This document shows positions 29,738 through 42,136 of a DNA stretch of 64,000 bases, piece after piece. The position numbers and the translations under genes were made by a program. The stretch covers positions 1 to 64,000 of the forward strand of contig PMSN01000025.1 of NCBI GenBank assembly GCA_003167555.1, written 5' to 3'. The number at the start of each line of letters is the position of its first letter. Within the stretch, counting starts at the first letter, position 1. This stretch comes from Spartobacteria bacterium (lineage in GTDB: Bacteria; Verrucomicrobiota; Verrucomicrobiia; Chthoniobacterales; UBA10450). The notes beneath the pieces are model-generated. The model made no database searches and was not told the DNA's origin. It saw nothing but the letters and a program-made list of their open reading frames with translations.

Positions 29738-32533
29738 ATGAAGGCACTTCTCGCGATCGGAACCCTGTTTGTTTCGTGCCACCTCTACGCAGGCACAATC
29801 TCCTATGTGCCGATCCCCGCATCCAACAGCGATGCCGGATCGGGGATCAGCGACAAGAACTCCTACACTAGCGCGGTGGATTCCGGCGCCGCTCCCGATG
29901 CCACCGCGGTAATTAATGGAGTAACTCTGCATCCCGTGATCGGCGAAGGGCAGACTTCCACCAACAATGGCATCACGCTCAGCGTGGCCACTGGCACCTT
30001 GATGAACGCCGGCGGAAAGAGTGCGACCATTCAGGCTGACGGTGTGCTCGGCAGCGTCCTGAATAACACCGTGTCCAATAACGGCGCCGAGAATAACTCC
30101 GAACAGTATCTCGCTCTCGATGCGCAGAGCTTGCAACCCGGCGTCACCTACGACCTCCGGATTTATGTCGCTAACTCCGCCAGCCAGGACCGGCAGGTCA
30201 ATCTCTCTTTCGCAGGCGATGGCAACCCGGCGGTCGAAACAGATTTCTTCAACGAAGATGACGCCACCACTTCCGCGGGCGGATTCGCCGATCCCAATCA
30301 GGTCTACTACATTAACTATCGGTTCCAGTGGGACGGGCAGACCGTTCCGGGGGTCACGATCACGCAGAGGGACGGCGGCACCCCCTTCTGTCTTTATGCC
30401 ATAACCAATCAAGTCGCCCCCGCGGATGGCGCAGCCCCGCCGGCGCCGGCCATCTCCGAGGTCGCGCCCGCTGCCACGGAGCCCCCGTCCGCTCCCGCTC
30501 CGGAAGCGGAGACGGCGTCGGACGACGTGGGTGTTGCCAGTGAAGTTTTCTACAACGACCCAGGACTGAAGAAGCGTGGCCGCTGGGTCAACGTCGAAGG
30601 CCAGGGGACAGCCTGGGAGCCCGCGGGCGTATCACGCAATTGGACGCCGTATACGGATGGATCCTGGGCCTACTCGGATGACGCCGGCTGGACTTGGACC
30701 ACGGATGAAGAATGGGGCTGGGCTACGTATCATTACGGCCGGTGGGTTCGCGCCGGCCGCTGGTACTGGATTCCAGGAAGGGTCTGGGCGCCTGCCTGGG
30801 TTTCGTGGCGTTACGGAGGCTCGTATGTCGGTTGGGCGCCTTTGCCGCCCGACGCGGGATTTAGAAGAAGCATCGGGATCAGCAGGTGGGCCGATCGTAT
30901 CTACGACATCGGCCCTCTTAACTATAGCTTTGTGAGAGTGCGCGACTTTGGATCGGTCAACATATCCAGGGTTGTTATCAATCAGATCCAAAACGTGAAC
31001 ATCATCACGAAGACGGTCAACATCACCAACATCGTTAACAACAACACGGTGATCTACAATGGCGGTCCGAATCAAATCGTAGTTAACAAGATCATCCAGA
31101 ATACCGGCGGAAACCTCATTCCGACCATTAAGGTGAATCGCGATCCCGCGTCGACCCTTCCCGACGGCAAACATACCAACCTCAAGAACGGCATCCTTTC
31201 CATTACTTCTCCGGTGGTAAAGCCGGAGAAGGATCTGAAGAATCACGTGAAGCCGACGGAAACGATCGGAAAGACAAAGCTGGATCATGGTTGGAACGCC
31301 GTGAAAGATCCCAAGCTCGCGAATGACCTGAAAAATCACATCTCTTCCGAGACCAAGGGGCAAACGCCGGAGAACGCGCCTGCGAAACTTCCGAAAAACC
31401 TTACCAATAAGACCACTCCCGTGGTGGGCGGCACACCCGGCCCGGGAATCACCACGCCCAGCCCGGGAATTACCAAGCCTGGGACCACGCCGGGACGGTC
31501 ACCGGCTGTCGCACAAACGCCTAGCCCGGGAATTACTAAGCCTGGGACCACGCCTGGACAGTCACCGACCGCCATGCAAACGCCCAGCCCGGGAATTACG
31601 AAGCCGGGGACTACACCTGGACAGTCGCCGACCGTTGCACAAACGCCTAGCCCGGGAATCACGAAGCCGGGGACTACACCTGGACAGTCGCCGACCGTTG
31701 CACAAACGCCTAGCCCGGGAATTACTAAGCCTGGCACCACGCCTGGACAGTCACCGACCGCCATGCAAACGCCCAGCCCGGGAATCACCAAGCCTGGGAC
31801 CACGCCAAGACAATCACCGACTGTCGCGCAAACGCCTAGCCCGGGAATTACGAAGCCGGGGACTACACCTGGACAGTCACCGGCCGTTGCACAAACGCCT
31901 AGCCCGGGAATTACAAAGCCGGGGACCACGCCAAGACAATCGCCGACCGTCGCGCAAACGCCCAGTCCCGGAATCTTCAAGCCCGGCGAGAAGATCACCA
32001 AGCCTGGAACCACGCCGGTGCGGTCGCCGGCTGTCGTGCAAACCCCTGGCCCGGTAATCACCAAGCCCGGACCAGTCACAGTCCAGACACCTGCGGCAGT
32101 GCAAAAGCCGGTCGCGACCCCCAGTCCGCCCGCCGTTAGCACCGACAAACGCCCGCACCCAACCGTCACGCCGCTGCCCGCCGTCACGAAGCGTCCGGAA
32201 ACCAGCGTGCCTCCGGTGAAAAATGTCCGGACAACTCAAACACCGGTCCCGACGCAAGTCCCAAAGCCGCCGGCCATACCGGTTACCAAACATGTAGAAC
32301 CCCCGAAGGCGTCGGTAGAGAAGCCCGTTCCGGTCGTCAAAGCGCCGCCGAAACCTGCACGAGTTGTCAAAGCGCCACCGAAACCAGCGCCAGTGGTTCC
32401 AGCGCCACCGAAGGCGGCCCCGGTAGTGAAAGCGCCGCCGCCGAAACCGGCCCCGGTTATCCAGGCGCCACCGAAACCACCGCCACCAGCTCCCGCGGCC
32501 AAGCCAAAGCCCACGCCTACGCCGGCGAAGTAG
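29738..32533 (+). CDS. Large secreted repeat-rich protein with Trp-rich domain
   Basis: 931 aa. Signal peptide 1-19. A beta-rich N-terminal domain (~20-225) is followed by a Trp-rich segment of the DUF6600 type (RWVNVEGQGTAWEP, WGWATYHYGRWV, WYWIPGRVWAPAWVSW, GWAPLPP; ~275-371). An Asn-rich stretch (VKTVNITNIVNNNTVIYNG-like) comes next. Residues ~574-741 are eight consecutive 21-residue repeats (PSPGITKPGTTPGQSPTxxQT). The rest is Pro/Lys-rich (KAPPKPAPVV). Probably an extracellular or cell-wall stalk-like protein. Confidence is high for the gene, low for function. Confidence 0.85.
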   Translation: MKALLAIGTLFVSCHLYAGTISYVPIPASNSDAGSGISDKNSYTSAVDSGAAPDATAVINGVTLHPVIGEGQTSTNNGITLSVATGTLMNAGGKSATIQADGVLGSVLNNTVSNNGAENNSEQYLALDAQSLQPGVTYDLRIYVANSASQDRQVNLSFAGDGNPAVETDFFNEDDATTSAGGFADPNQVYYINYRFQWDGQTVPGVTITQRDGGTPFCLYAITNQVAPADGAAPPAPAISEVAPAATEPPSAPAPEAETASDDVGVASEVFYNDPGLKKRGRWVNVEGQGTAWEPAGVSRNWTPYTDGSWAYSDDAGWTWTTDEEWGWATYHYGRWVRAGRWYWIPGRVWAPAWVSWRYGGSYVGWAPLPPDAGFRRSIGISRWADRIYDIGPLNYSFVRVRDFGSVNISRVVINQIQNVNIITKTVNITNIVNNNTVIYNGGPNQIVVNKIIQNTGGNLIPTIKVNRDPASTLPDGKHTNLKNGILSITSPVVKPEKDLKNHVKPTETIGKTKLDHGWNAVKDPKLANDLKNHISSETKGQTPENAPAKLPKNLTNKTTPVVGGTPGPGITTPSPGITKPGTTPGRSPAVAQTPSPGITKPGTTPGQSPTAMQTPSPGITKPGTTPGQSPTVAQTPSPGITKPGTTPGQSPTVAQTPSPGITKPGTTPGQSPTAMQTPSPGITKPGTTPRQSPTVAQTPSPGITKPGTTPGQSPAVAQTPSPGITKPGTTPRQSPTVAQTPSPGIFKPGEKITKPGTTPVRSPAVVQTPGPVITKPGPVTVQTPAAVQKPVATPSPPAVSTDKRPHPTVTPLPAVTKRPETSVPPVKNVRTTQTPVPTQVPKPPAIPVTKHVEPPKASVEKPVPVVKAPPKPARVVKAPPKPAPVVPAPPKAAPVVKAPPPKPAPVIQAPPKPPPPAPAAKPKPTPTPAK
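31457..31960 (+). repeat. Eight tandem 63-bp coding repeats
   Basis: Exact 63-bp period: copies start at 31457, 31520 and so on to 31960, and a ninth, interrupted copy follows. Each unit encodes PSPGITKPGTTPGQSPTVAQT or a variant (G/R, VAQ/AMQ). Copies are nearly identical, including at synonymous sites, which implies recent expansion by slippage or unequal exchange, so copy number may vary between strains. Confidence 0.95.
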
Positions 32534-32999: not shown

Positions 33000-35144
33000 T
33001 TATTTCTTGGTTTCCAACTCTGCCAAAAGCTTTTCGTACTTCTGGGTGGAAGGATGCTTAGGTCCCAGGACTTTGCGCGCGCCTTCAGCCGCTCGCCGGG
33101 CAAACTCTTTCGCTTCCTGGAGCTTGTTCTGGCTCTTTAATCCAGAAGCAAAGTAGTAATAGGAATCCAGCGTTTGGGGATGCTGAGGTTCAAGTGCTTT
33201 CTCCTGGAGCCTGATTACCTCGCGAAAATCTGCTTCCGCCTCGGCATACTTGCCCTGTCCATAGAGCCCTCTTGCCAGAGTAGCGCGGCTCAAAAGCGTA
33301 TCCGGATGCTCGGGTCCCACGACTCTTTCCAGAATCTTGATCAGCGCGCGTTCTTCCGCTTCCGCCTCGCCATACTTGCCTTGATCATTAAGGGCAACGC
33401 CCAGGTTGTTGCGGCTCCAAAGCGTGTCGGGATGCTCGGGTCCCATTACTCTTTCTTCAATCTTGATCAGCTCGCGGTCTTGCGCTTCCGCTTCGCTGTA
33501 TTTGCCTTGATCATCCAGGACACCCGCCAGGTTGTTGCGGGTAAAAAGCGTATCGGGATGCTCCGGCCCCAGCACTTTCTCTCTTACCTTGATGATCTCG
33601 CGATATTGCGCTTCCGCCTCGCTAAATCGGCCTTGATCGTTAAGCTCAGCGGCCAGGTTGTTCCGGCTCCTCAGCGTGTCGAGATGTTCCGGCCCCAGCA
33701 CTTTCTCTCTCAGCTTGATTAGCTCGACGTCTTCTTTTTCCGCCTCGGCAAACTTGTCCTGGTCACGCAGAAGATTGGCCAGGACACTTCGCGCTGAGAG
33801 CGTATCCGGATGCTCCGGCCCCAGGATCTTTTCTTCCAGCTTGATCAACGCACGAGAATCCGCGTCCGCCTCCGTGTATTTGTATTCTTTCCAAAGAGCG
33901 CCGTCCAGGCGGCCCCGGCTCTTGAGCGTGTCGGGATGCTCGGGCCCCAGCACGCGAGTTCTAACTAAAACAACACTTCGCAGTATGTTCTCAGCGTCAT
34001 TGTAATGTCCCTGATCAATTAACAGATCGGCAATCGCGTATTGCACTTCCGCCCAATCCTCCGGAGTTCGCTCGCGATCGGTTAGCTTCTCAGCTTCGCG
34101 GAAGTGTTCCAGCGCTTCCGCATACTGGATCCGTTTCTGGGCCGATTGGCCCGCTAACTCATAGCCCTGGATCGCCTGCTTGCGCCGATCCTCTTGCACG
34201 CGCTGCGCCGCCTCATACCCTTGCCGGTCCTGCTTCGCGCCTTCCAGACTAAGCCGCTCCGCTTCCTCAAAGTGCCCGAGAGCGTAAGCCGCCCGCGCGC
34301 GCATGAGAGGGGTAGTATCGCTGCGATTGTAAAGCTCCAGCGCGAACCCGGGAAGTTCTTTCGCCAATGCTCCCGCCGGAAGACCAAGCTCCCTTTCCAG
34401 GAGACCGTAGGCATTGGCTCGTTGTTCCTCCGGCGACGCTTTGGAGCCGGGGGCCTTCGACTGGGCTTCGACATCAGCCAGGCGCACGAGTGCTTGCTGC
34501 ATCTTCTGATAGCGATCCACAATCGTGCTCACTTGCTCGCTCTGCTTCTGGATCGCGCCAGTTTGCCGGCGCTGCCCCTGCACAATCCAAACGCTGGCTG
34601 CTACCAGGACAAGGAGAAGCGCAATCACGGTGAAAGCCCATTGTTTGACCCCGCGGCGCAGGCGCGTGAGCTCGTCGCGGAGCTTGAGGACCCCTGCCTC
34701 CAGGGCTTCGCTGCTGTTGAGCGGATGGAACACGTGCGTTTCAGATTGCAAGCGACGACGATAAGCAGCTTGCAGCTCACGCACTTCGTCAGGCTCGACT
34801 TCACAAACGTCGCCAGGAAAGTGCTCATCGATGAACAAGTACCAGACTTTCTTCCCGCGCTTTCGCGCGTAAAGGGCTTCGTATTGCGTATAGCTTATCC
34901 GGCCTAACTCCTCATCAGCGGTGGGCGGCTCGGCGCCATAACATTGTCCCACGAGTTGAACGACTCCTTTGCATTGATCAATCTGCTGGCGAAGCAAAAC
35001 ACGCAGATCGCCAGTTTCGGTCCCAAAGATGTCTTGCCACACTGGTTGATAGCCGAGAAAAGTCAGCGTATTGGCGACGAGTTGCCGGGCGCTTTTCAGC
35101 TCACGACTGACTGCGGAAATGAAGATGAGCGGGCGTGGCGTCAG
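33000..35144 (-). CDS. DUF4062 - membrane helix - kinesin-light-chain TPR protein
   Basis: 714 aa if initiated at CTG 35144. Residues 1-140 are a DUF4062 domain (TPRPLIFISAVSRELKSARQ, then GYQPVWQDIFGTETGDLRxLL, QIDQCKGVVQLVGQCYG, YTQYEALYARKRGKKVW); an ATG at 35042 would cut this domain in half. A membrane helix follows (~168-188). The C-terminal ~330 residues hold eight 42-residue TPR_12 units with the phrase GPEHPDTLxSRNNLA. Proteins with DUF4062 at the N-terminus and TPR or STAND parts are suspected immune or signalling proteins. It lies on the opposite strand to the surrounding cassettes and between direct repeats, as if acquired. Confidence 0.82.
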   Translation of the reverse strand: MTPRPLIFISAVSRELKSARQLVANTLTFLGYQPVWQDIFGTETGDLRVLLRQQIDQCKGVVQLVGQCYGAEPPTADEELGRISYTQYEALYARKRGKKVWYLFIDEHFPGDVCEVEPDEVRELQAAYRRRLQSETHVFHPLNSSEALEAGVLKLRDELTRLRRGVKQWAFTVIALLLVLVAASVWIVQGQRRQTGAIQKQSEQVSTIVDRYQKMQQALVRLADVEAQSKAPGSKASPEEQRANAYGLLERELGLPAGALAKELPGFALELYNRSDTTPLMRARAAYALGHFEEAERLSLEGAKQDRQGYEAAQRVQEDRRKQAIQGYELAGQSAQKRIQYAEALEHFREAEKLTDRERTPEDWAEVQYAIADLLIDQGHYNDAENILRSVVLVRTRVLGPEHPDTLKSRGRLDGALWKEYKYTEADADSRALIKLEEKILGPEHPDTLSARSVLANLLRDQDKFAEAEKEDVELIKLREKVLGPEHLDTLRSRNNLAAELNDQGRFSEAEAQYREIIKVREKVLGPEHPDTLFTRNNLAGVLDDQGKYSEAEAQDRELIKIEERVMGPEHPDTLWSRNNLGVALNDQGKYGEAEAEERALIKILERVVGPEHPDTLLSRATLARGLYGQGKYAEAEADFREVIRLQEKALEPQHPQTLDSYYYFASGLKSQNKLQEAKEFARRAAEGARKVLGPKHPSTQKYEKLLAELETKK

Positions 35145-35309: not shown

Positions 35310-35640
35310 CGCATGTTCCTCGTCAAATCCGCCCGTGCAGTTGGAGGAAACGATCATAAGCGAAGGCACTCTGAGCAATCTGGCGGCAGGTGCAGCCATC
35401 AAGGTCACGATCCGGTCCCGCAATTCCCGCGGAGGCGAAAGCGCCCCGAGCGCTCCCGCCTCCGGGACCGTGCCATAAGAGGCGGGTCCTTACGAAAAGG
35501 GCGGGGTCCAAGTCCCTATCTTTTGCATTGCGAGGCTTTGCTGAATTCACTACGGTTGAAATCGTGCACCTTCCTCCCTTCTCGAATCGTGATAGACGAA
35601 AAAATGTCCGCCTTTAATTACGAACATTCGTCTAATTCTC

Positions 35641-35647
35641 GTTAGGT
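35641..35647 (+). other. attC-like core GTTAGGT before cassette gene 1
   Basis: GTTAGGT fits GTTRRRY, the R' core of integron attC sites, and is preceded by ATTCTC, as at 38075-38087 and 41355-41367. The following GTG start at 35655 lies 8 bp away, as expected for a cassette. The core motif alone is weak; its support comes from recurrence at successive gene starts. Confidence 0.4.
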
Positions 35648-35654
35648 CTTTACC

Positions 35655-36299
35655 GTGCGTCTTCTCTTCACCATCGCGCTACTCGAAGCCAGCACGATCG
35701 GATTCGCTGTGGCTAATCCGATCGCGATCGATTTGGGTGAACCGATTTCGCTGATCGCGGAGAGCGTCGATATCGCCATTCATGAGAGTCAGTCAGTTGT
35801 ATCAGGAACGTACTCTTTTCGCCAGGTGCAAGGACGACTGGTTGCACCAGACGACGGAATCTTGATCCAGGTGCCGATCATAGTTCACGGCCCGCAGAAT
35901 TTTGCGTCGCTCAAATCGTCCACCGCTGCTTCCCTCAGTATCGGACGACGAGTGTTTCATCCTTCACGGGCGTCCGTCGGCTCGCCGCTATACGACTTGC
36001 CCTCGGGCTGGAAGCTCTATTACTTGGAGTTCGAGATTCCGCGTCCTGCTGTTCGCTCCGTTTTCACCCTCGCTATTCGCTATATTCAACCGCATCTACC
36101 GGGTAATGTCGTACCGTATTATCCTATCCATCCGCCTGAGCGGTGGGCTCCGAGGTCTATCGTCCGTTACTCGGTGGCAGGGCCCGCCTCGCTAGCACTA
36201 GATTCGAAGGGCGAGAAGGTTATCGAGGCCCAGCGCACGCGCATATCCGTTCAGCCGCAGCACCACAAACTGATCTTGGTTCGCGTGAACAAGACCTAA
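35655..36299 (+). CDS. Secreted protein of unknown function (cassette-like gene)
   Basis: 214 aa from GTG 35655, signal peptide 1-20 (ends VAN). The rest is beta-rich with no recognised family: IHESQSVVSGTYSFRQV, GILIQVPIIVHG, WKLYYLEFEIPRPAVRSVF, LPGNVVPYYPIHPPERW, and a C-terminal QPQHHKLILVRV. The stop codon lies within ACCTAAC (36294-36300), which looks like an attC R'' box. The 3' flank is interrupted by the IS110 element 20-40 bp downstream. It looks like a gene-cassette ORF. Confidence 0.65.
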   Translation: MRLLFTIALLEASTIGFAVANPIAIDLGEPISLIAESVDIAIHESQSVVSGTYSFRQVQGRLVAPDDGILIQVPIIVHGPQNFASLKSSTAASLSIGRRVFHPSRASVGSPLYDLPSGWKLYYLEFEIPRPAVRSVFTLAIRYIQPHLPGNVVPYYPIHPPERWAPRSIVRYSVAGPASLALDSKGEKVIEAQRTRISVQPQHHKLILVRVNKT

Positions 36300-36319
36300 C
36301 CAAGCGATGCAGACAGGCT
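36294..36319 (+). other. attC-like site, left part, interrupted by IS110
   Basis: ACCTAACCAAGCGATGCAG then ACAGGCT directly follows the preceding gene. It aligns with 41177 (GCGTAACCGGGCGATGCCG...GACAGGCT) and 42045 (GTCTAACCGGACGATGCCG...GACAGGCT). Similarity ends at about 36320, where IS110 sequence begins, and seems to resume at ~37836. Confidence 0.5.
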
Positions 36320-36338
36320 ATGACTGGTTGCAAGGGTT

Positions 36339-37565
36339 TTATGCAGCATTTTTGAGCGGAAGGTTAGGGTTAGACTGATAAGGTTTTCCGGAGCGCAAGA
36401 CGGCCACTAATCTGCGGGTGAGGATGCGCATGAGATGGCTGAGAGCGACGTGGTGAGTTTTGCCTTCGGAGCGTTTGCGCTGGTAAAAGGCCTTTAGCTC
36501 TGGGTCATGTTGGGCGGCACTGAAGGCGGCCTGGAAGAAGGCGGTGCGCAAGGTTTCCACCCCGCGCTTGCTCATTTTGGTTTGTCCTTTCCACTGGCCA
36601 CTTTCCTTGAGCCTCGGGTCGTTGCCCATGAAGGCCTGAAGACGGGCGGCCACTTTGCGATTGCTGCCAGAGTGCAAGAGTGCGCTGGGAAGGTAAGCCA
36701 GGACTTTGGCGGCAGTGGTTGGACCCAAGCCGGGCATTGATTCCACCAGCGCTTTGGTCTTTGGGTCCACGCTTCGGTCGGCGAGGGTTTCGATCTGTTG
36801 ATCCAGGCTGCGCAGCCGCGTTTCCATCGCGCCCAGGGCCTGGAGGATGGCTTGCAAGGCTGGGGCACTGGCCGCGCTGAGCTCTCGATCGGCCAGAGAG
36901 TCCGCCGCCAGCGCTTTGAGCGCCGCCGCTTTGGGTCGAAGCATCCAGTTCTTCTCCAAGGTGGAGAGGCGCACCCGCGCGATCGCGGCCGGGGTGGGCG
37001 CCCGCTCAAGCAGAGCGCGGATACCCACCCCGTCCACTTCGAGGAGTTGGCCCAGCTCCGGGAAGCTTAACTCCAGCACGCTTTGATAGGTCTTCTTCAA
37101 ATTGGTCAGAGCGTTGCGCAAGGCTTTGCGGACAGTTTGCAAGCGCTGCAGAGCGAACTGCTCTGGCTTTAAGCCAAAGCGATAGTGCGCCAGGAGTTTT
37201 TCCCCATGGAGTGCTCCGATGGCGCATAACCCGCGTGCATCAATTGGATCGGTCTTGTTCTCGCGCAGGGAGTTTTCCACCGTGTAAAGCCGCCGCGCCA
37301 TGAGCGGATTGATCACCGCCACGGCATAACCCGCTTTGGCCAGCGCCGCGGCCCAGTTGAGATGCAGCACACCGGTCGCTTCGATCAGCACCAATAATTG
37401 CGGCCCCTCCGCGACAAACTGCTTCAAACTTAAAAGCAGTTCGCGCAGACCGGCCGCGCTCGCCGCCAGATCTTTTTCGAAGAGAAAACGTTCGTCTGCT
37501 CCGCTCAGAGCGGCCCGAACTTTGTGTTTGGCTGTATCAATTCCAAGGATATAAGTTGTTTTCAT
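36339..37565 (-). CDS. IS110 family transposase (DEDD)
   Basis: 408 aa, full length. The N-terminal RuvC-like DEDD domain has Asp10 (GIDTAKH), Glu62 (LIEATG), Asp106 and Asp109 (KTDPIDAR). A coiled middle section follows (~170-280), then the C-terminal Transposase_20 domain with SMPGLGPTTAAKVLAYLPS and the conserved GNDPRLKESG/KMSKRG region that contributes the nucleophilic serine in the family. It is intact and so possibly active. Known IS110 enzymes recombine DNA with a bridge RNA made from the element's non-coding end. Confidence 0.95.
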   Translation of the reverse strand: MKTTYILGIDTAKHKVRAALSGADERFLFEKDLAASAAGLRELLLSLKQFVAEGPQLLVLIEATGVLHLNWAAALAKAGYAVAVINPLMARRLYTVENSLRENKTDPIDARGLCAIGALHGEKLLAHYRFGLKPEQFALQRLQTVRKALRNALTNLKKTYQSVLELSFPELGQLLEVDGVGIRALLERAPTPAAIARVRLSTLEKNWMLRPKAAALKALAADSLADRELSAASAPALQAILQALGAMETRLRSLDQQIETLADRSVDPKTKALVESMPGLGPTTAAKVLAYLPSALLHSGSNRKVAARLQAFMGNDPRLKESGQWKGQTKMSKRGVETLRTAFFQAAFSAAQHDPELKAFYQRKRSEGKTHHVALSHLMRILTRRLVAVLRSGKPYQSNPNLPLKNAA

Positions 37566-37835
37566 TGAGGTGGGTGGTTTCTGAGTTTTTAAACAAATGG
37601 CCTCGGTGGCTTTAGCTTATAGCCAGGTGAACGATTCCTTTGCTGGGTTCGTTTCAGGCGATCAAAGCTCAGCGTGGCCGGTGAAAAAAGGGGCCGGCAG
37701 GTCTCCTCTGCGTCCAATGCTCCCACGAGGGGGCGATGGCGAACGGGCAAAGACTCTGCCGACCCAAAACCCACTAAACCAGAACCGCCCCCTCAATCCA
37801 CTTTCCCATGAGAGAGAAGCGTTCACACCAGACAC
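37566..37835 (-). ncRNA. Candidate IS110 bridge-RNA region
   Basis: About 270 bp between the IS110 transposase start and the inferred element end contain no gene. On the transposase strand it is G-rich and structured; one clear stem is GCCGG/CCGGC at 37677-37681 and 37694-37698 with a T-rich loop. Position and length match the leader that encodes the bridge RNA in IS110-group elements. Its target- and donor-binding loops were not resolved by eye. Confidence 0.4.
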
Positions 37836-38087
37836 ATAAGCGAGCGGCTACCCGCCTCGCGATCACGTTTCCCCATGACTAAATCACTTCCACCTCGATT
37901 GACGCTCGCTCCCGGTAGCCGTCGCTGATCTAATTGATTCACTCATGCCATTCGTTCACCCTTCGGGCTTGACTCGTTCGCTCCCGCTCACTCGGCCTCT
38001 CGGCTTGCCCATCTACGTCGCTCGCGTCCCCGCGGCTCCGTTCCCGTCTATGTCACGGCTTGGCAGTCCGTTCCATTCTCGTTACGC
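37836..38087 (+). other. attC-like site, right part, ending in GTTACGC core
   Basis: It resumes with GCGAGCGGCTACCCGC and CGATCA, as in the site at 42045-42136. It continues through a C/T-rich stretch and CCCGTCTATGTC...GGCAGTCCG (38043-38070; repeated at 43356-43383), and ends ATTCTC-GTTACGC directly before the next cassette gene. At ~250 bp it is long for an attC, so it may be a composite of decayed sites. Confidence 0.4.
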
Positions 38088-38103
38088 CTACAACCGCCCA
38101 TTC

Positions 38104-40515
38104 ATGAACGACCTGCTGCTGGATATTCGTTATGCGCTGCGCGGGCTGTGGAAGTCTCCCGCGTTCACGCTCGTAGCCACCCTCACTCTGATGCTGGGGA
38201 TTGGGGCAAATGTCCTCGTCTTCGGAGTAGTGAATGCGGTGCTGCTGCGTCCGCTGGATGTGAGCGAGCCTCAGAACCTCTACGAGATTCGTCTCAAGCC
38301 GTGGACGCATTGGAAACTACTGACGACGTCGTATCCTGCGTTTGAAGACTACCAGCAGCGAAACACCACCTTCAGCGGTCTGGCCGGCTATGATGGATAT
38401 TCAGGGGGGAGATTGCGCTGGGGTGACACGGTGAAAAAGGTCTCCGGCTATTCGGCTACCGGCAACTATTTCGATCTGCTCGGAGTGCAGCCGGCACTAG
38501 GGCGGTTCTTCCACGAAGCGGACGTCCACGGTCCGAATTCAGCGCCCTATATGGTGTTGAGCGATCGCCTTTGGCGAAGCGCATTTAACGCCGATCCCGG
38601 CGTGGTCGGCTCCAAGGTGCGGCTCGGCAAAGATCCGTTCACGGTCCTGGGCGTGGCCCCGCCGCGGTTTCACGGCACGGAGCGATTTGAATGGCCGGAC
38701 TACTGGATACCCGTTGTGAACCATATCGACGCGGAGCACCTGAAGGACCGGACGGGCCATCCTTTGACGGTGCTGGGCCGGCTTAAGCCAGGCGTGACGC
38801 CCCAGCAGGCTGCGGAGAATCTCAGTGCGATCACGGCCCAGCTGGCGAAGGAGTATCCAACCACGGAGACCGGAGTGCCGCTGCGGCTGATCCGTCCCGG
38901 ACTTCATGCCGACGAAGGTGACGTCACCCGCGGATTTCTTTACAGCGTGACCGCGCTCGCCCTGCTGGTGTTGCTCGCGGCGTGCGCGAATCTGGCCAGC
39001 CTGTTTGCGGCGCGCGCGGCGGATCGCAGCCGGGAACTGGCGCTCCGTGTCGCCTTGGGAGCGAGCCGGTGGCGGTTGGTGCGGCAACTATTTACCGAGG
39101 CGATGGTGTTGTCGATGCTGGGTGGCGCTGCGGGGATGGCGGCCGCAGCTCTGTTGCTGGGCGCGCTCAACCGGTGGGGATTGCCGGGCTACGGCGACCT
39201 GGCAGCGGAGGTCGATCTGTCTGTTTACCTGGTGGCCCTGATCTTGACGCTCGTCAGCGGGCTGCTCTTCGGAATGATTCCGGCGAGAAACGTTTGGCAG
39301 AGCAGTCCGTTGCAAGCGCTGAAGAGCGGACCGGTGGATGCAACGCCCCGGCGCCAGTTAGGCCTGCGGGACCTGCTCCTCGGCGCGCAAATTGTAATCT
39401 GCACGTTGCTGGTCATCGCCTCACTCGTCGCCGTGCGAGGCATGGTGCGCCTGCTGCACGCGCCGCTGGGCTTCCAGCCGCAGGGGGCGATGGTGGCCGA
39501 GATGGATCTGAGCGAGGTGGAAGGCGACGTGCCGCTGGAGAAAACGAAAGCGATGATCGACGCCCTGCGAAGCATCCCTGGTGTGACGTCCGCAGGAACG
39601 GTAAACAGAGTACCCTTTACCGGCGGGATCCGGGGCATTCCGGTTTTTCCGCCGGGGACAACAGAGCTCACGTTGAACAATTCTGTGCTGTCGCCGTACG
39701 GGTTCACGCTATCCCCAGGCTACCTCGAGGCTGCCGGCACCCGGCTCCTGCGCGGCCGGGATGTCTCATGGCGTGACACCACCAAGACGCCGTATGTCGC
39801 GATCGTGAACGAAACTTTTTCTCGGAAGATGTGGGGCGACACGCCGGCGATTGGACAACGCTTTATTTTCCTGGACCACTTGAGGGAAGTGGTCGGCGTG
39901 ACGGAGGACGGCAAGTATCACGCGATTCAAGATCCGCCCCAGCCTGTGGTCTTTCTGCCGTTGCCGCAAAACGAAAAGGCCAACACGGTTTTCGTCGTGC
40001 GATTGGACCGGGCGCAGAACGAGATCGCGGCCGCGATGGAACGCACTCTAAACGGATTTGAACCGAATGCGCAGATAACGGTGCAGAGCTGGCCGGATGT
40101 GATCGCGGGTGCGCTCTTCCCGGCCCGGGCGGCGGCAGCGGCACTGGGCGTCATGGGCCTGCTGGCGGTGGTGGTGGCGGTAACCGGCATCTTCGGCATG
40201 GCTACCTACAACGTGAGCCGCCGGATGAAGGAACTGGGTATCCGCGTCGCCTTGGGCGCGCGCACGAAGCACGTGATGAGTGTGGCGGTTCGGCGGCCCA
40301 TCGTGCTGCTTGGGCTCGGATCGTTAGCGGGGCTGCTGATCGGAGTCTTCGCCAGCCCGTTACTGGAACAGTTCGTGTATCAGGCGAATCCGCGGGATCC
40401 CGTTGTGTTGGGGGGCGCGGTGTTAACGATGGCGCTGCTGGGTCTTGCCGCGTCCGCCATTCCAGCCCTACGAGCGCTTGCAATCGATCCATCCAAACTC
40501 ATGCGGGAAGAGTAA
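38104..40515 (+). CDS. ABC transporter permease, ADOP family (MacB/FtsX-like)
   Basis: 803 aa from ATG 38104 (MNDLLLDIRYALRGLWKSPAF), the canonical ADOP opening. The frame is open upstream to 37945, but that part is attC-like repeat, not protein. Layout: membrane helix, MacB periplasmic core (~45-240), three-helix FtsX domain (~275-400), a second helix and periplasmic core (~430-650), and a final FtsX domain (~665-800, GIFGMATYNVSRRMKELGIRVALGA). ADOPs are orphan duplicated permeases without their own ATPase; exact substrates are unknown. At 2.4 kb it would be a very long cassette gene. Confidence 0.9.
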   Translation: MNDLLLDIRYALRGLWKSPAFTLVATLTLMLGIGANVLVFGVVNAVLLRPLDVSEPQNLYEIRLKPWTHWKLLTTSYPAFEDYQQRNTTFSGLAGYDGYSGGRLRWGDTVKKVSGYSATGNYFDLLGVQPALGRFFHEADVHGPNSAPYMVLSDRLWRSAFNADPGVVGSKVRLGKDPFTVLGVAPPRFHGTERFEWPDYWIPVVNHIDAEHLKDRTGHPLTVLGRLKPGVTPQQAAENLSAITAQLAKEYPTTETGVPLRLIRPGLHADEGDVTRGFLYSVTALALLVLLAACANLASLFAARAADRSRELALRVALGASRWRLVRQLFTEAMVLSMLGGAAGMAAAALLLGALNRWGLPGYGDLAAEVDLSVYLVALILTLVSGLLFGMIPARNVWQSSPLQALKSGPVDATPRRQLGLRDLLLGAQIVICTLLVIASLVAVRGMVRLLHAPLGFQPQGAMVAEMDLSEVEGDVPLEKTKAMIDALRSIPGVTSAGTVNRVPFTGGIRGIPVFPPGTTELTLNNSVLSPYGFTLSPGYLEAAGTRLLRGRDVSWRDTTKTPYVAIVNETFSRKMWGDTPAIGQRFIFLDHLREVVGVTEDGKYHAIQDPPQPVVFLPLPQNEKANTVFVVRLDRAQNEIAAAMERTLNGFEPNAQITVQSWPDVIAGALFPARAAAAALGVMGLLAVVVAVTGIFGMATYNVSRRMKELGIRVALGARTKHVMSVAVRRPIVLLGLGSLAGLLIGVFASPLLEQFVYQANPRDPVVLGGAVLTMALLGLAASAIPALRALAIDPSKLMREE

Positions 40516-40705
40516 GGCAGCGTCGGAAATGATGAAGGATGAATGGAGTGAAATGGGGATGAGCGACATAGAAGGTAAAGCCGTAAGGGAAAACGGCGAC
40601 TGAGCGGGGAAGCGAAGGAGTTTCAATTATGAAGGATGAAACTGCAGTCAAGCGCCACAAAGTTTACCCGCCGCGGCGGGCTAGCGGTCCCTGATCTTGC
40701 GTCTC

Positions 40706-40712
40706 GTTAGGC
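40706..40712 (+). other. attC-like core GTTAGGC before SnoaL cassette
   Basis: GTCTC-GTTAGGC lies 3 bp before the ATG at 40715. It fits GTTRRRY perfectly. A matching RYYYAAC box at the end of the ADOP gene was not seen; the intervening 190 bp instead hold ATGAAGGATGAA-type repeats and a GCCGCGGCGGGC palindrome (~40671-40682), so the site may be degenerate. Confidence 0.4.
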
Positions 40713-40714
40713 CT

Positions 40715-41182
40715 ATGAAAACCACACTATCCATTTTGATCGCCGCAATGCTGGCGGGCGCAGCGTTTGCTGAAACTCCAGTTGAAGAGAAACGGGTGCG
40801 CGAAGTTGTGCAATCGTTCTACGCTGGCTTTAACTCCCATGGGTGGACGCACGCAGCGGATTACACGACCGAAGATTGGAACCACATTAATCCGGGAGGC
40901 GGCTGGGCGCGTGGACGAGCCGCCGTGCTCAAAGAATTGGAGGAGGTGCACAGCACCTTTTTGAAAGGCGTCTCCGATACGATCGAAGAGATGGCCGTGC
41001 GGTTTGCGAGTGCGGACGTCGCAGTCGTTACCGTCACCAGCCGGATGAGCACATTCACGATGCCCGACGGTGTCAGACACGAAAACGAGCAACACATCCG
41101 GACGTTTGTTGTGGTGCAGCGAAATGGCCACTGGTTGATCATGCAAGATCAGAACACCGCTGTCGCACGCCCGAAGGCGTAA
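40715..41182 (+). CDS. Secreted SnoaL/NTF2-like protein
   Basis: 155 aa from ATG 40715, signal peptide MKTTLSILIAAMLAGAAFA. NTF2-like core: VREVVQSFYAGFNSHGWTHAADYTTEDWNHINPGGGW (segments partly quoted), RGRAAVLKELEEVHSTFLKGV, VAVVTVTSRMSTFTM and HIRTFVVVQRNGHWLIMQDQNT. Typical of the DUF4440/SgcJ-type secreted NTF2 proteins; substrate unknown. The TAA stop is embedded in GCGTAAC, the first box of the attC-like site that follows. Confidence 0.85.
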   Translation: MKTTLSILIAAMLAGAAFAETPVEEKRVREVVQSFYAGFNSHGWTHAADYTTEDWNHINPGGGWARGRAAVLKELEEVHSTFLKGVSDTIEEMAVRFASADVAVVTVTSRMSTFTMPDGVRHENEQHIRTFVVVQRNGHWLIMQDQNTAVARPKA

Positions 41183-41367
41183 CCGGGCGATGCCGTTTCG
41201 ACAGGCTCAAGGCTCCGAGCATTTGGTCCAGGGGCAGCGAACCCCGAAAGCATTCGCGAGTAGGCCGGCTTGCCAGTCTGCTCCATTGATTCACTCCCTC
41301 CCGCTCGTTCACATTCCATGCTAGGGTCTATCTCGCTCTGCTCCCGCAGGCTCGATTCTCGTTAGAC
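41177..41367 (+). other. attC-like site between SnoaL and methyltransferase-like genes
   Basis: It starts GCGTAACCGGGCGATGCCG, continues GACAGGCTCAAGG, and ends CTCGATTCTCGTTAGAC. The ends are imperfect complements: the reverse complement of the right end, GTCTAACGAGAATCGAGCC, pairs with GCGTAACCGGGCGATGCC allowing one bulge, as in attC sites. Length 191 bp is longer than usual. The next gene starts 19 bp downstream. Confidence 0.5.
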
Positions 41368-41386
41368 ACGCAGAAGCCACGTGTAA

Positions 41387-42034
41387 ATGAATTACATCCA
41401 AGACTTCATAGCTGGATTCAAAAGTCTTCCGGCGCACGGCCTTGCTGCTTTGGGGGTTCTTTTGCTCTATGCGGTCGAATCCGAAATCCGGTTCGGCGCA
41501 AAAGCGCGCACCATGAGTGCGGGGCCGGCTGACCGTTGGAGTACGATCGCGGTTTCCTTCGCGTCAGCCGTACCGGTGCTTGGTTTCATCCTCGCGATGC
41601 GGGGGGGCAACTCCACGCTTCTGCGCACTTTACCACCTTGGCTGCGCGATCCCGGCACCATGCCTGGCATGCCGCTGATTGCCTGGTTGGGGGTGGGACT
41701 TGGGGTGACCGGGCTACTTTTGCGATTATGGGCACTCCTCACCCTGCGGCAGCGATATACCCGCACGTTGCGCGTCGACGAAGGTCATTTGGTTGAGCGT
41801 GGCGCTGCGTATAAGCTTGTTCGACATCCAGGTTATCTTGGTTCTCTCATGTGCCTCAACGGCCTTGGCCTGGCCTCCGGCAACGCGGTAGTTTTCCTCG
41901 CGACCCTTGTCGCGACGATTACGGCCTACACCTACCGAATCCACGTAGAGGAAGAGATGCTAGTTACAGCATTTGGAGCTTCCTACGAGCGTTATCGGCG
42001 CGAGGTTCCAGCGCTTTTGCCATTCCTGCGATGA
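41387..42034 (+). CDS. Isoprenylcysteine carboxyl methyltransferase-like membrane protein
   Basis: 215 aa, with five or so membrane helices. The C-terminal ICMT/PEMT signature is present: AYKLVRHPGYLGSLMCLNG (~144-162), then RIHVEEEMLVTAFGASYERYRREVPAL, containing the Glu/Arg/Tyr residues that hold S-adenosylmethionine in the family. In bacteria such proteins methylate unknown lipids or small molecules; no prenylated protein substrate is implied. It sits between two attC-like sites as a cassette gene. Confidence 0.85.
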   Translation: MNYIQDFIAGFKSLPAHGLAALGVLLLYAVESEIRFGAKARTMSAGPADRWSTIAVSFASAVPVLGFILAMRGGNSTLLRTLPPWLRDPGTMPGMPLIAWLGVGLGVTGLLLRLWALLTLRQRYTRTLRVDEGHLVERGAAYKLVRHPGYLGSLMCLNGLGLASGNAVVFLATLVATITAYTYRIHVEEEMLVTAFGASYERYRREVPALLPFLR

Positions 42035-42044
42035 GCGTAAAGTG

Positions 42045-42136
42045 GTCTAACCGGACGATGCCGTGTCGACAGGCTCAAGGTCCTGAGCGTGCCGAAGGAC
42101 AGCGAGCGGCTACCCGCTGCCCGATCAAGGTTGAGG
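42045..42136 (+). other. attC-like site after methyltransferase-like gene
   Basis: It begins GTCTAAC (fits RYYYAAC), continues CGGACGATGCCG and GACAGGCTCAAGG, has a central CAGCGAGCGG/CCCGCTG stem, and ends CCCGATCAAGGTTGAGG. The end GTTGAGG is a near match to GTTRRRY. At 92 bp it has normal attC length, and its two ends can pair along ~16 bp with a bulge. Best of the candidate sites. Confidence 0.55.

What the first reader, a model, noticed from the sequence alone, without database searches (positions are those of the whole stretch)
35641..42136. Possible integron-type cassette array (attC-like sites) without a visible integrase
Seen: three successive plus-strand genes end in TAACC sequences that match each other well beyond a core. 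The pattern is nnnTAACCnnnCGATGCnG then GACAGGCT at 36294, 41177 and 42045. Four gene starts are preceded by (T)CTC-GTTA-type boxes (35641, 38081, 40706, 41361), three of which fit GTTRRRY. The genes are unrelated, short-spaced and same-strand: secreted protein, ADOP permease, SnoaL, ICMT-like, DUF1801-like. The site at 42045-42136 has normal attC length and pairing ends. Known: cassettes carry one ORF plus one attC. Inference: a CALIN or distal part of a chromosomal integron. Caveats: some sites are 190-280 bp long, the ADOP gene would be an unusually large cassette, and GTTAGG is frequent in this GC-rich DNA.
Basis: partly seen in the sequence, partly recalled or inferred. Interest (0 to 1): 0.82.

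Follow-up and report, generated by a model that had tools for sequence, protein, structure and literature searches.

The report
Decaying integron array missing its integrase
This stretch is the decayed remains of an integron (a system that collects genes as movable cassettes) in a soil Verrucomicrobiota genome; it kept its docking site but lost its integrase, and across this bacterial family the joints between cassettes appear to double as tiny reading frames that hand ribosomes on to the next gene.

Summary
The genome (Verrucomicrobiota, Chthoniobacterales) has two intact integron integrases elsewhere, and TTCTCGTTARRY occurs 43 times against 5 for the reversed control. A covariance model built only from attC sites outside the window finds an attC at 37839-37926 (53 bits, E 2e-14); its left end, 36294-36311, is split off by an IS110 element. 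The first box (35592-35647) is an attI: the same sequence lies directly 3' of an intact same-strand intI in a congener. So this is an attI-headed cassette array that lost its own integrase. The other attC sites are decayed. In relatives the ICMT and ADOP genes sit elsewhere, with homology ending at cassette boundaries. attC sites occur in 60 of 61 family genomes; orphan attIs of this type are common (30 of 39). Beyond the finding, most attC sites of this family carry a start codon 63/66 nt before the core, in frame with the core's TAG and open in 158 of 158 such sites; cassette genes usually start 0-8 nt after that TAG, almost never with a Shine-Dalgarno-like motif. This suggests built-in termination-reinitiation coupling at every junction, an extension of class 1 ORF-11.

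The parts
35592..35647 (+). orphan attI: TAGACG...CGTCTA palindrome, TTCTC, core GTTAGGT
   Evidence: near-identical unit directly 3' of an intact same-strand intI in congener G005:C24; 7 exact and 2 near copies of its right end in own genome; 39 distinct in family loci
35604..35645 (+). 13-codon mini-ORF MSAFNYEHSSNSR* inside attI, stop TAG overlaps the core
   Evidence: sequence; same frame and position in many attI copies
35655..36299 (+). cassette 1 gene, 214 aa, no Pfam match; GTG start 9 nt after the attI TAG, stop TAA inside R''
   Evidence: R'' ACCTAAC is the exact complement of the cassette's own start GTTAGGT
36294..36311 (+). attC1 left part (R'' + L'')
   Evidence: matches attC consensus; cut by the IS110 element
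36312..37838 (-). IS110-family element inserted in attC1; transposase 36339-37565 (-), longer non-coding region 5' of it
   Evidence: Pfam PF01548 and PF02371; independent relative at the same attC position in G005:C20
37839..37935 (+). attC1 inner stem and right part; mini-ORF 37875-37928 MTKSLPPRLTLAPGSRR*
   Evidence: covariance-model hit 37839-37926, 53.3 bits, E=2.4e-14
37936..38077 (.). 142-bp insert between L' and R' of attC1, flanked by ATT
   Evidence: 92% copy at C21:1421-1604
38081..38087 (+). core before the ADOP gene, GTTACGC (probably a mutated GTTAGGC)
   Evidence: homologous junction in another genus reads CTCGTTAGGCCTACAACC, preceded by an attC of 63.8 bits
38104..40515 (+). 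ADOP/MacB-FtsX permease gene, large cassette or part of a cassette fusion
   Evidence: Pfam PF12704, PF02687; attC or attC halves beside its homologue in several relatives
40629..40712 (+). right half of a decayed attC, core GTTAGGC at 40706; mini-ORF 40629-40694
   Evidence: sequence match to attC right halves; R'' half missing
40715..41182 (+). cassette gene, SnoaL/DUF4440, ATG right behind the core (GTTAGGCCTATG), stop TAA in R''
41177..41367 (+). extended attC with inserts; R'' GCGTAAC to core GTTAGAC
   Evidence: not called by the model
41387..42034 (+). cassette gene, ICMT/PEMT-like methyltransferase
   Evidence: homologues elsewhere in G005 and G007, homology 41384-42042 only
42045..42132 (+). 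truncated attC: R'' GTCTAAC + L'', palindromic insert, part of the stem, no R'
   Evidence: R'' is the complement of its cassette start GTTAGAC (41361)

Best explanation
The region is a decayed chromosomal integron cassette array of a Chthoniobacterales bacterium. It belongs to an integron lineage in which intI lies on the same strand as the cassettes and attI follows directly at its 3' end. Here intI is gone, attI (35592-35647) remains, and three or four cassettes follow (unknown 214-aa protein, ADOP permease, SnoaL, ICMT). Shown: attI identity by comparison, attC identity by covariance model, integrases elsewhere in the genome, cassette genes in other contexts in relatives, IS110 in the first attC. 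Inferred: cassettes entered at attI by IntI recombination with folded bottom-strand attC; the integrase gene was later deleted; IS110 and small inserts hit the attC sites, so most can no longer be excised. Inferred expression: a transcript from upstream is translated by termination-reinitiation, with mini-ORFs in attI and attC ending at or just before the core and handing ribosomes to the next cassette gene (separate confidence about 0.6).
For: Two intact integron integrases in the genome, one with a full-length match to the Vibrio IntI structure 2A3V, E 7e-85. Textbook attC fold with R''/R' pairing, two extrahelical bases and 9 compensatory pairs in the genome's arrays. Independent window hit E 2.4e-14. 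attI directly 3' of an intact same-strand intI; co-oriented intI form one clade. R'' is the exact complement of the cassette's own start for the cassettes at 35641 and 41361. attC in 60/61 family genomes. Homology of ICMT and ADOP ends at cassette boundaries. Coupling: ATG 57-72 nt before the core in frame 0/1/2 = 104/10/3 in the genus and 39/5/6 in other genera; 0 of 158 sites have a stop in frame 0, shuffles expect about 46; 62 of 104 cassette ORFs start at most 8 nt after the TAG, 4 of 104 have an SD-like 4-mer.
Against: Only one attC in the window is called by the model; the others rest on partial matches. Core 38081 deviates from GTTRRRY, and the ADOP gene lacks an R'' half behind it. No empty site was found: the left and right flanks are on different contigs in congener G005. 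For coupling: codon position 3 is not clearly more variable, so there is no sign of selection on the peptide; shared ancestry of attC sites inflates the counts; the control set from other phyla was too small to use.
Confidence: 0.9

Rival explanations
1. The array arose without its own integrase: cassettes were inserted off-target in the chromosome (attG-type) by an IntI acting from elsewhere, and the attI-like head is only a favourable landing sequence.
For: Intact intI genes elsewhere; attG insertion is described in the literature (cited in PMC12901181); many scattered single sites in the genome.
Against: The head is not a generic site: it is near-identical over about 55 nt to the attI beside intact intI, with homology starting at the intI stop codon. 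Some orphan attIs keep what look like the last codons of intI (C21 and C26 against C4), which points to deletion.
Confidence: 0.15
2. The attI itself is mobile: a cassette-like or transposed attI unit is copied around the genome and seeds new arrays.
For: 7 exact and 2 near copies in this genome, mostly without intI and with unrelated upstream sequence; attI-type cassettes are described in class 1 integrons (PMC12901181).
Against: No constant left end, target duplication or R'' partner seen; intI remnants at one copy (C4) favour deletion.
Confidence: 0.15
3. Not an integron: dispersed palindromic repeats that resemble attC by chance in GC-rich DNA.
For: GTTAGG is common; some sites contain palindromic repeats.
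Against: 43 against 5 control hits, covariance with extrahelical bases, integrases and attI beside the same sites, independent E 2.4e-14 hit.
Confidence: 0.02
4. The attC mini-ORFs are a by-product of stem sequence constraints and shared ancestry, not translated.
For: Peptide sequence shows no clear synonymous bias; stem positions are constrained by pairing.
Against: The start codon lies in the unpaired, variable loop yet stays in frame in other genera too; no stops in frame 0 while frames 1 and 2 have 17 and 50 of 158; cassette starts abut the TAG without SD.
Confidence: 0.35

Closest known systems
CALIN (cluster of attC sites lacking an integron integrase) and inactivated chromosomal integrons, e.g. 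Xanthomonas (PMC12444791)
   Same: cassettes with attC, no adjacent intI, integrase lost in some lineages
   Different: here the attI is retained, attC sites carry IS110 and small inserts, and many orphan attIs occur per genome
Class 1 integron attI1 ORF-11 and attC short ORFs (reviewed in PMC8876359)
   Same: mini-ORF in the recombination site, stop TAG at positions 3-5 of GTTRRRY, translational coupling to the next gene; a short attC ORF relieving the stem-loop barrier is described for some class 1 attCs
   Different: ORF-11 is only in attI and has its own SD; here mini-ORFs are in most attC sites of a whole bacterial family and cassette genes lack SD
attC-targeting IS1111/IS110 elements (ISKpn4, ISPst6; seekRNA, PMC11187229)
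   Same: DEDD transposase element placed at a fixed position of attC
   Different: those named are IS1111 type with the non-coding region downstream of tnp; this one has it upstream (IS110 type) and sits beside L''

Membership tests
Integron | integron-type integrase (IntI) | tested here: met
   in the genome, two over the TIGR02249 cut-off, 2A3V homology; none at this locus
Integron | attI site | tested here: met
   35592-35647 matches attI directly 3' of intact intI in a congener
Integron | attC: R''/R' and L''/L' pairing with extrahelical bases on the bottom strand | tested here: met
   met for genome arrays and for 37839-37926; other window sites decayed
Integron | R'' complementary to the cassette's own start | tested here: met
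   exact for cassettes 35641 and 41361; one mismatch for 40706; the ADOP cassette has no R'' of its own
Integron | cassette presence/absence at exact boundaries in relatives | tested here: met
   ICMT and ADOP elsewhere, homology ends at boundaries; no empty site seen
Integron | recombination activity | not testable with these tools
   needs an excision/integration assay
CALIN (IntegronFinder definition) | at least two attC sites close together, no intI nearby | tested here: inconclusive
   no intI nearby; only one site is called by the model, others partial; IntegronFinder itself not run
attC-targeting IS110/IS1111 | DEDD transposase element inserted at a fixed attC position | tested here: met
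   two independent insertions at GCGATG[C/G]A^GACAGGCTATG; guide-RNA match not tested

The most novel reading that the evidence does not exclude
In the integrons of this Verrucomicrobiota family every recombination site is also a translation relay: attI and most attC sites encode a mini-ORF whose stop lies in or just before the core, so that any cassette landing there is translated by termination-reinitiation without needing its own ribosome-binding site. The window array is a fossil of such a system.
Probability: 0.6. Interest if true: 0.75.

Novelty: new variant of a known kind. Interest (0 to 1): 0.58.

Why it matters
Integrons are best known from Proteobacteria; here they pervade a family of soil Verrucomicrobiota, with two integrase lineages sharing one attC type and many attI sites left behind without integrases. 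If the attC mini-ORFs are translated, they would explain how SD-less cassette genes far from the promoter are expressed through attC stem-loops, and this is directly testable.

Tried and rejected
Rfam gathering scan: no hit. A generic attC detector on contigs of other phyla gave too few sites for a control of the mini-ORF, and it scores both strands of each palindrome. Stop codon of the upstream gene inside R'': 42 of 128 against 15 and 19 in shifted frames, suggestive only. Cassette 38081 to 41177 (GTTACGC/GCGTAAC) as a single cassette: set aside because a relative has GTTAGGC at the same junction, but a fused ADOP-SnoaL cassette is not excluded. The 110-aa ORF 35313-35645 shows no intI motif and was not pursued.

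Full report
Observation. The window is contig C12:1-64000 of a 4.2-Mb genome. The composite R''-L'' motif YAACCnnnCGATGC has 16 hits genome-wide against 1 for the reversed pattern; 7 of these begin with T and three of those seven lie in this 6 kb. TTCTCGTTARRY has 43 hits against 5, and many lie next to integrases and at contig ends.

The genome has integrons. Two integrases exceed the curated integron cut-off (C18:344046, C14:89276), and one aligns full-length to the Vibrio IntI structure 2A3V. Beside them lie attI-type cores and complete attC sites of about 124 nt. Eleven such sites from this genome fold on the bottom strand with R''/R' pairing, an unpaired spacer, L''/L' pairing and two extrahelical bases, with nine pairs showing compensatory change. 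The nearest named integrase relatives are Candidatus Udaeobacter and other Chthoniobacterales, so the genome belongs to Verrucomicrobiota, order Chthoniobacterales (inference from these hits).

The window site. A covariance model of those eleven sites, none from the window, hits 37839-37926 with 53.3 bits, E 2.4e-14. This is the inner part of an attC whose R''/L'' end lies at 36294-36311. The two pieces are separated by an IS110-family element (transposase 36339-37565, Pfam PF01548 and PF02371). A diverged relative of that element sits at the same position of an attC in congener G005, as known for attC-targeting IS1111 elements (PMC11187229). Further decay: a 142-bp insert at ATT^CTCGTTA, a short palindromic insert at two sites, and loss of R'' or R' at others. 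R'' is the exact complement of the cassette's own start for the cassettes starting at 35641 and 41361, and differs at one position for 40706.

The head is an attI. In G005:C24 an intact intI is followed on the same strand, from its stop codon, by TAGACGAAAAATGTTCGCCTTTAATTACGAACTTTCGTCTAATTCTCGTTAGGT and then by cassettes with attC. Window 35592-35647 is that sequence with two substitutions and a small length difference in the A run. Of 39 distinct copies collected in family loci, 9 lie at an intI 3' end and 30 do not (only about 400 nt upstream were inspected). Co-oriented integrases form one clade and divergent ones group apart. In this genome the co-oriented type survives only as a fragment at C4, so the window array has lost its cognate integrase. 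Whether the two divergent-type integrases act on it is unknown.

Relatives. attC sites occur in 60 of 61 family genomes, up to 125 in one genome, and integrases in 32 of 61. ICMT homologues lie at unrelated loci, and one of them has no attC at its ends. The ADOP gene lies beside attC sites or halves in several relatives, and in another genus its homology starts exactly at the core. Congener G002 has an attI of this type and a different gene in front of the window's right flank. No empty site was found.

Mechanism of expression (inference). In attI a 13-codon ORF ends with TAG inside the core GTTAG. In attC an ATG lies 63 or 66 nt before the core TAG and in frame with it: frame counts are 104/10/3 in the genus and 39/5/6 in other genera. 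Among 158 sites with that ATG none has a stop in frame 0 before the last five codons, against about 46 expected from composition shuffles and 17 and 50 in the other frames. Many of these ORFs end at a TGA five codons before the TAG, others at the TAG itself. Cassette ORFs start at most 8 nt after the TAG in 62 of 104 cases, and 4 of 104 have an SD-like 4-mer. The amino acids show no clear selection, as expected if only the act of translation matters; amino acid changes also had only slight effect in ORF-11 of class 1 integrons, whose TAG likewise lies at positions 3-5 of GTTRRRY (PMC8876359). That review also mentions short ORFs within some attC sites that relieve the stem-loop barrier. New here is the systematic presence across a family. 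Caveats: shared ancestry of the sites, no usable control set from other phyla, and no expression data.

Verdict. The integron interpretation is supported and refined: an attI-headed, integrase-less, decaying cassette array. Integrons in Verrucomicrobiota are listed in the literature (PMC8618304), and searches of the held library showed no detailed account of them. The class of thing is known; the attI placement, the number of orphan attIs and the attC mini-ORFs make it a new variant.

Noticed in passing
37936-38077 and about 41287-41357: An insert of about 70-140 bp at ATT^CTCGTTA just before the recombination core, also in C21 and C20 of this genome, in other genera, and in an attI of G005 (L347) in tandem; origin unknown.
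   Followed up: partly
41194-41240 and 42062-42100: Short palindromic insert TCGACAGGCTCAAGG...CCTGAGC; four of the six best copies in the genome lie next to cassette cores (window, C21).
   Followed up: partly
L011 (G000:C4:1-3300): Fragment of a co-oriented integron integrase with a GIY-YIG-like ORF inserted at the conserved LGH / TTMIYTH site, between two attI-type cores.
   Followed up: partly
29738-32533: DUF6600 protein with about eight 21-residue repeats (63 bp) near its C-terminus.
   Followed up: no
33000-35042: TPR protein (minus strand) with 126-bp (42-residue) repeats.
   Followed up: no
ends of contigs C4, C12, C14, C18: Several contigs end at or near the same IS-like end sequence (CCTAGGCTCAACTTTGTAGTG) directly beside cassette arrays, so the assembly probably breaks one or more larger arrays.
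   Followed up: no
family-wide intI tree: Two integrase lineages, co-oriented and divergent with respect to cassettes, coexist in one bacterial family and share the same attC type.
   Followed up: partly
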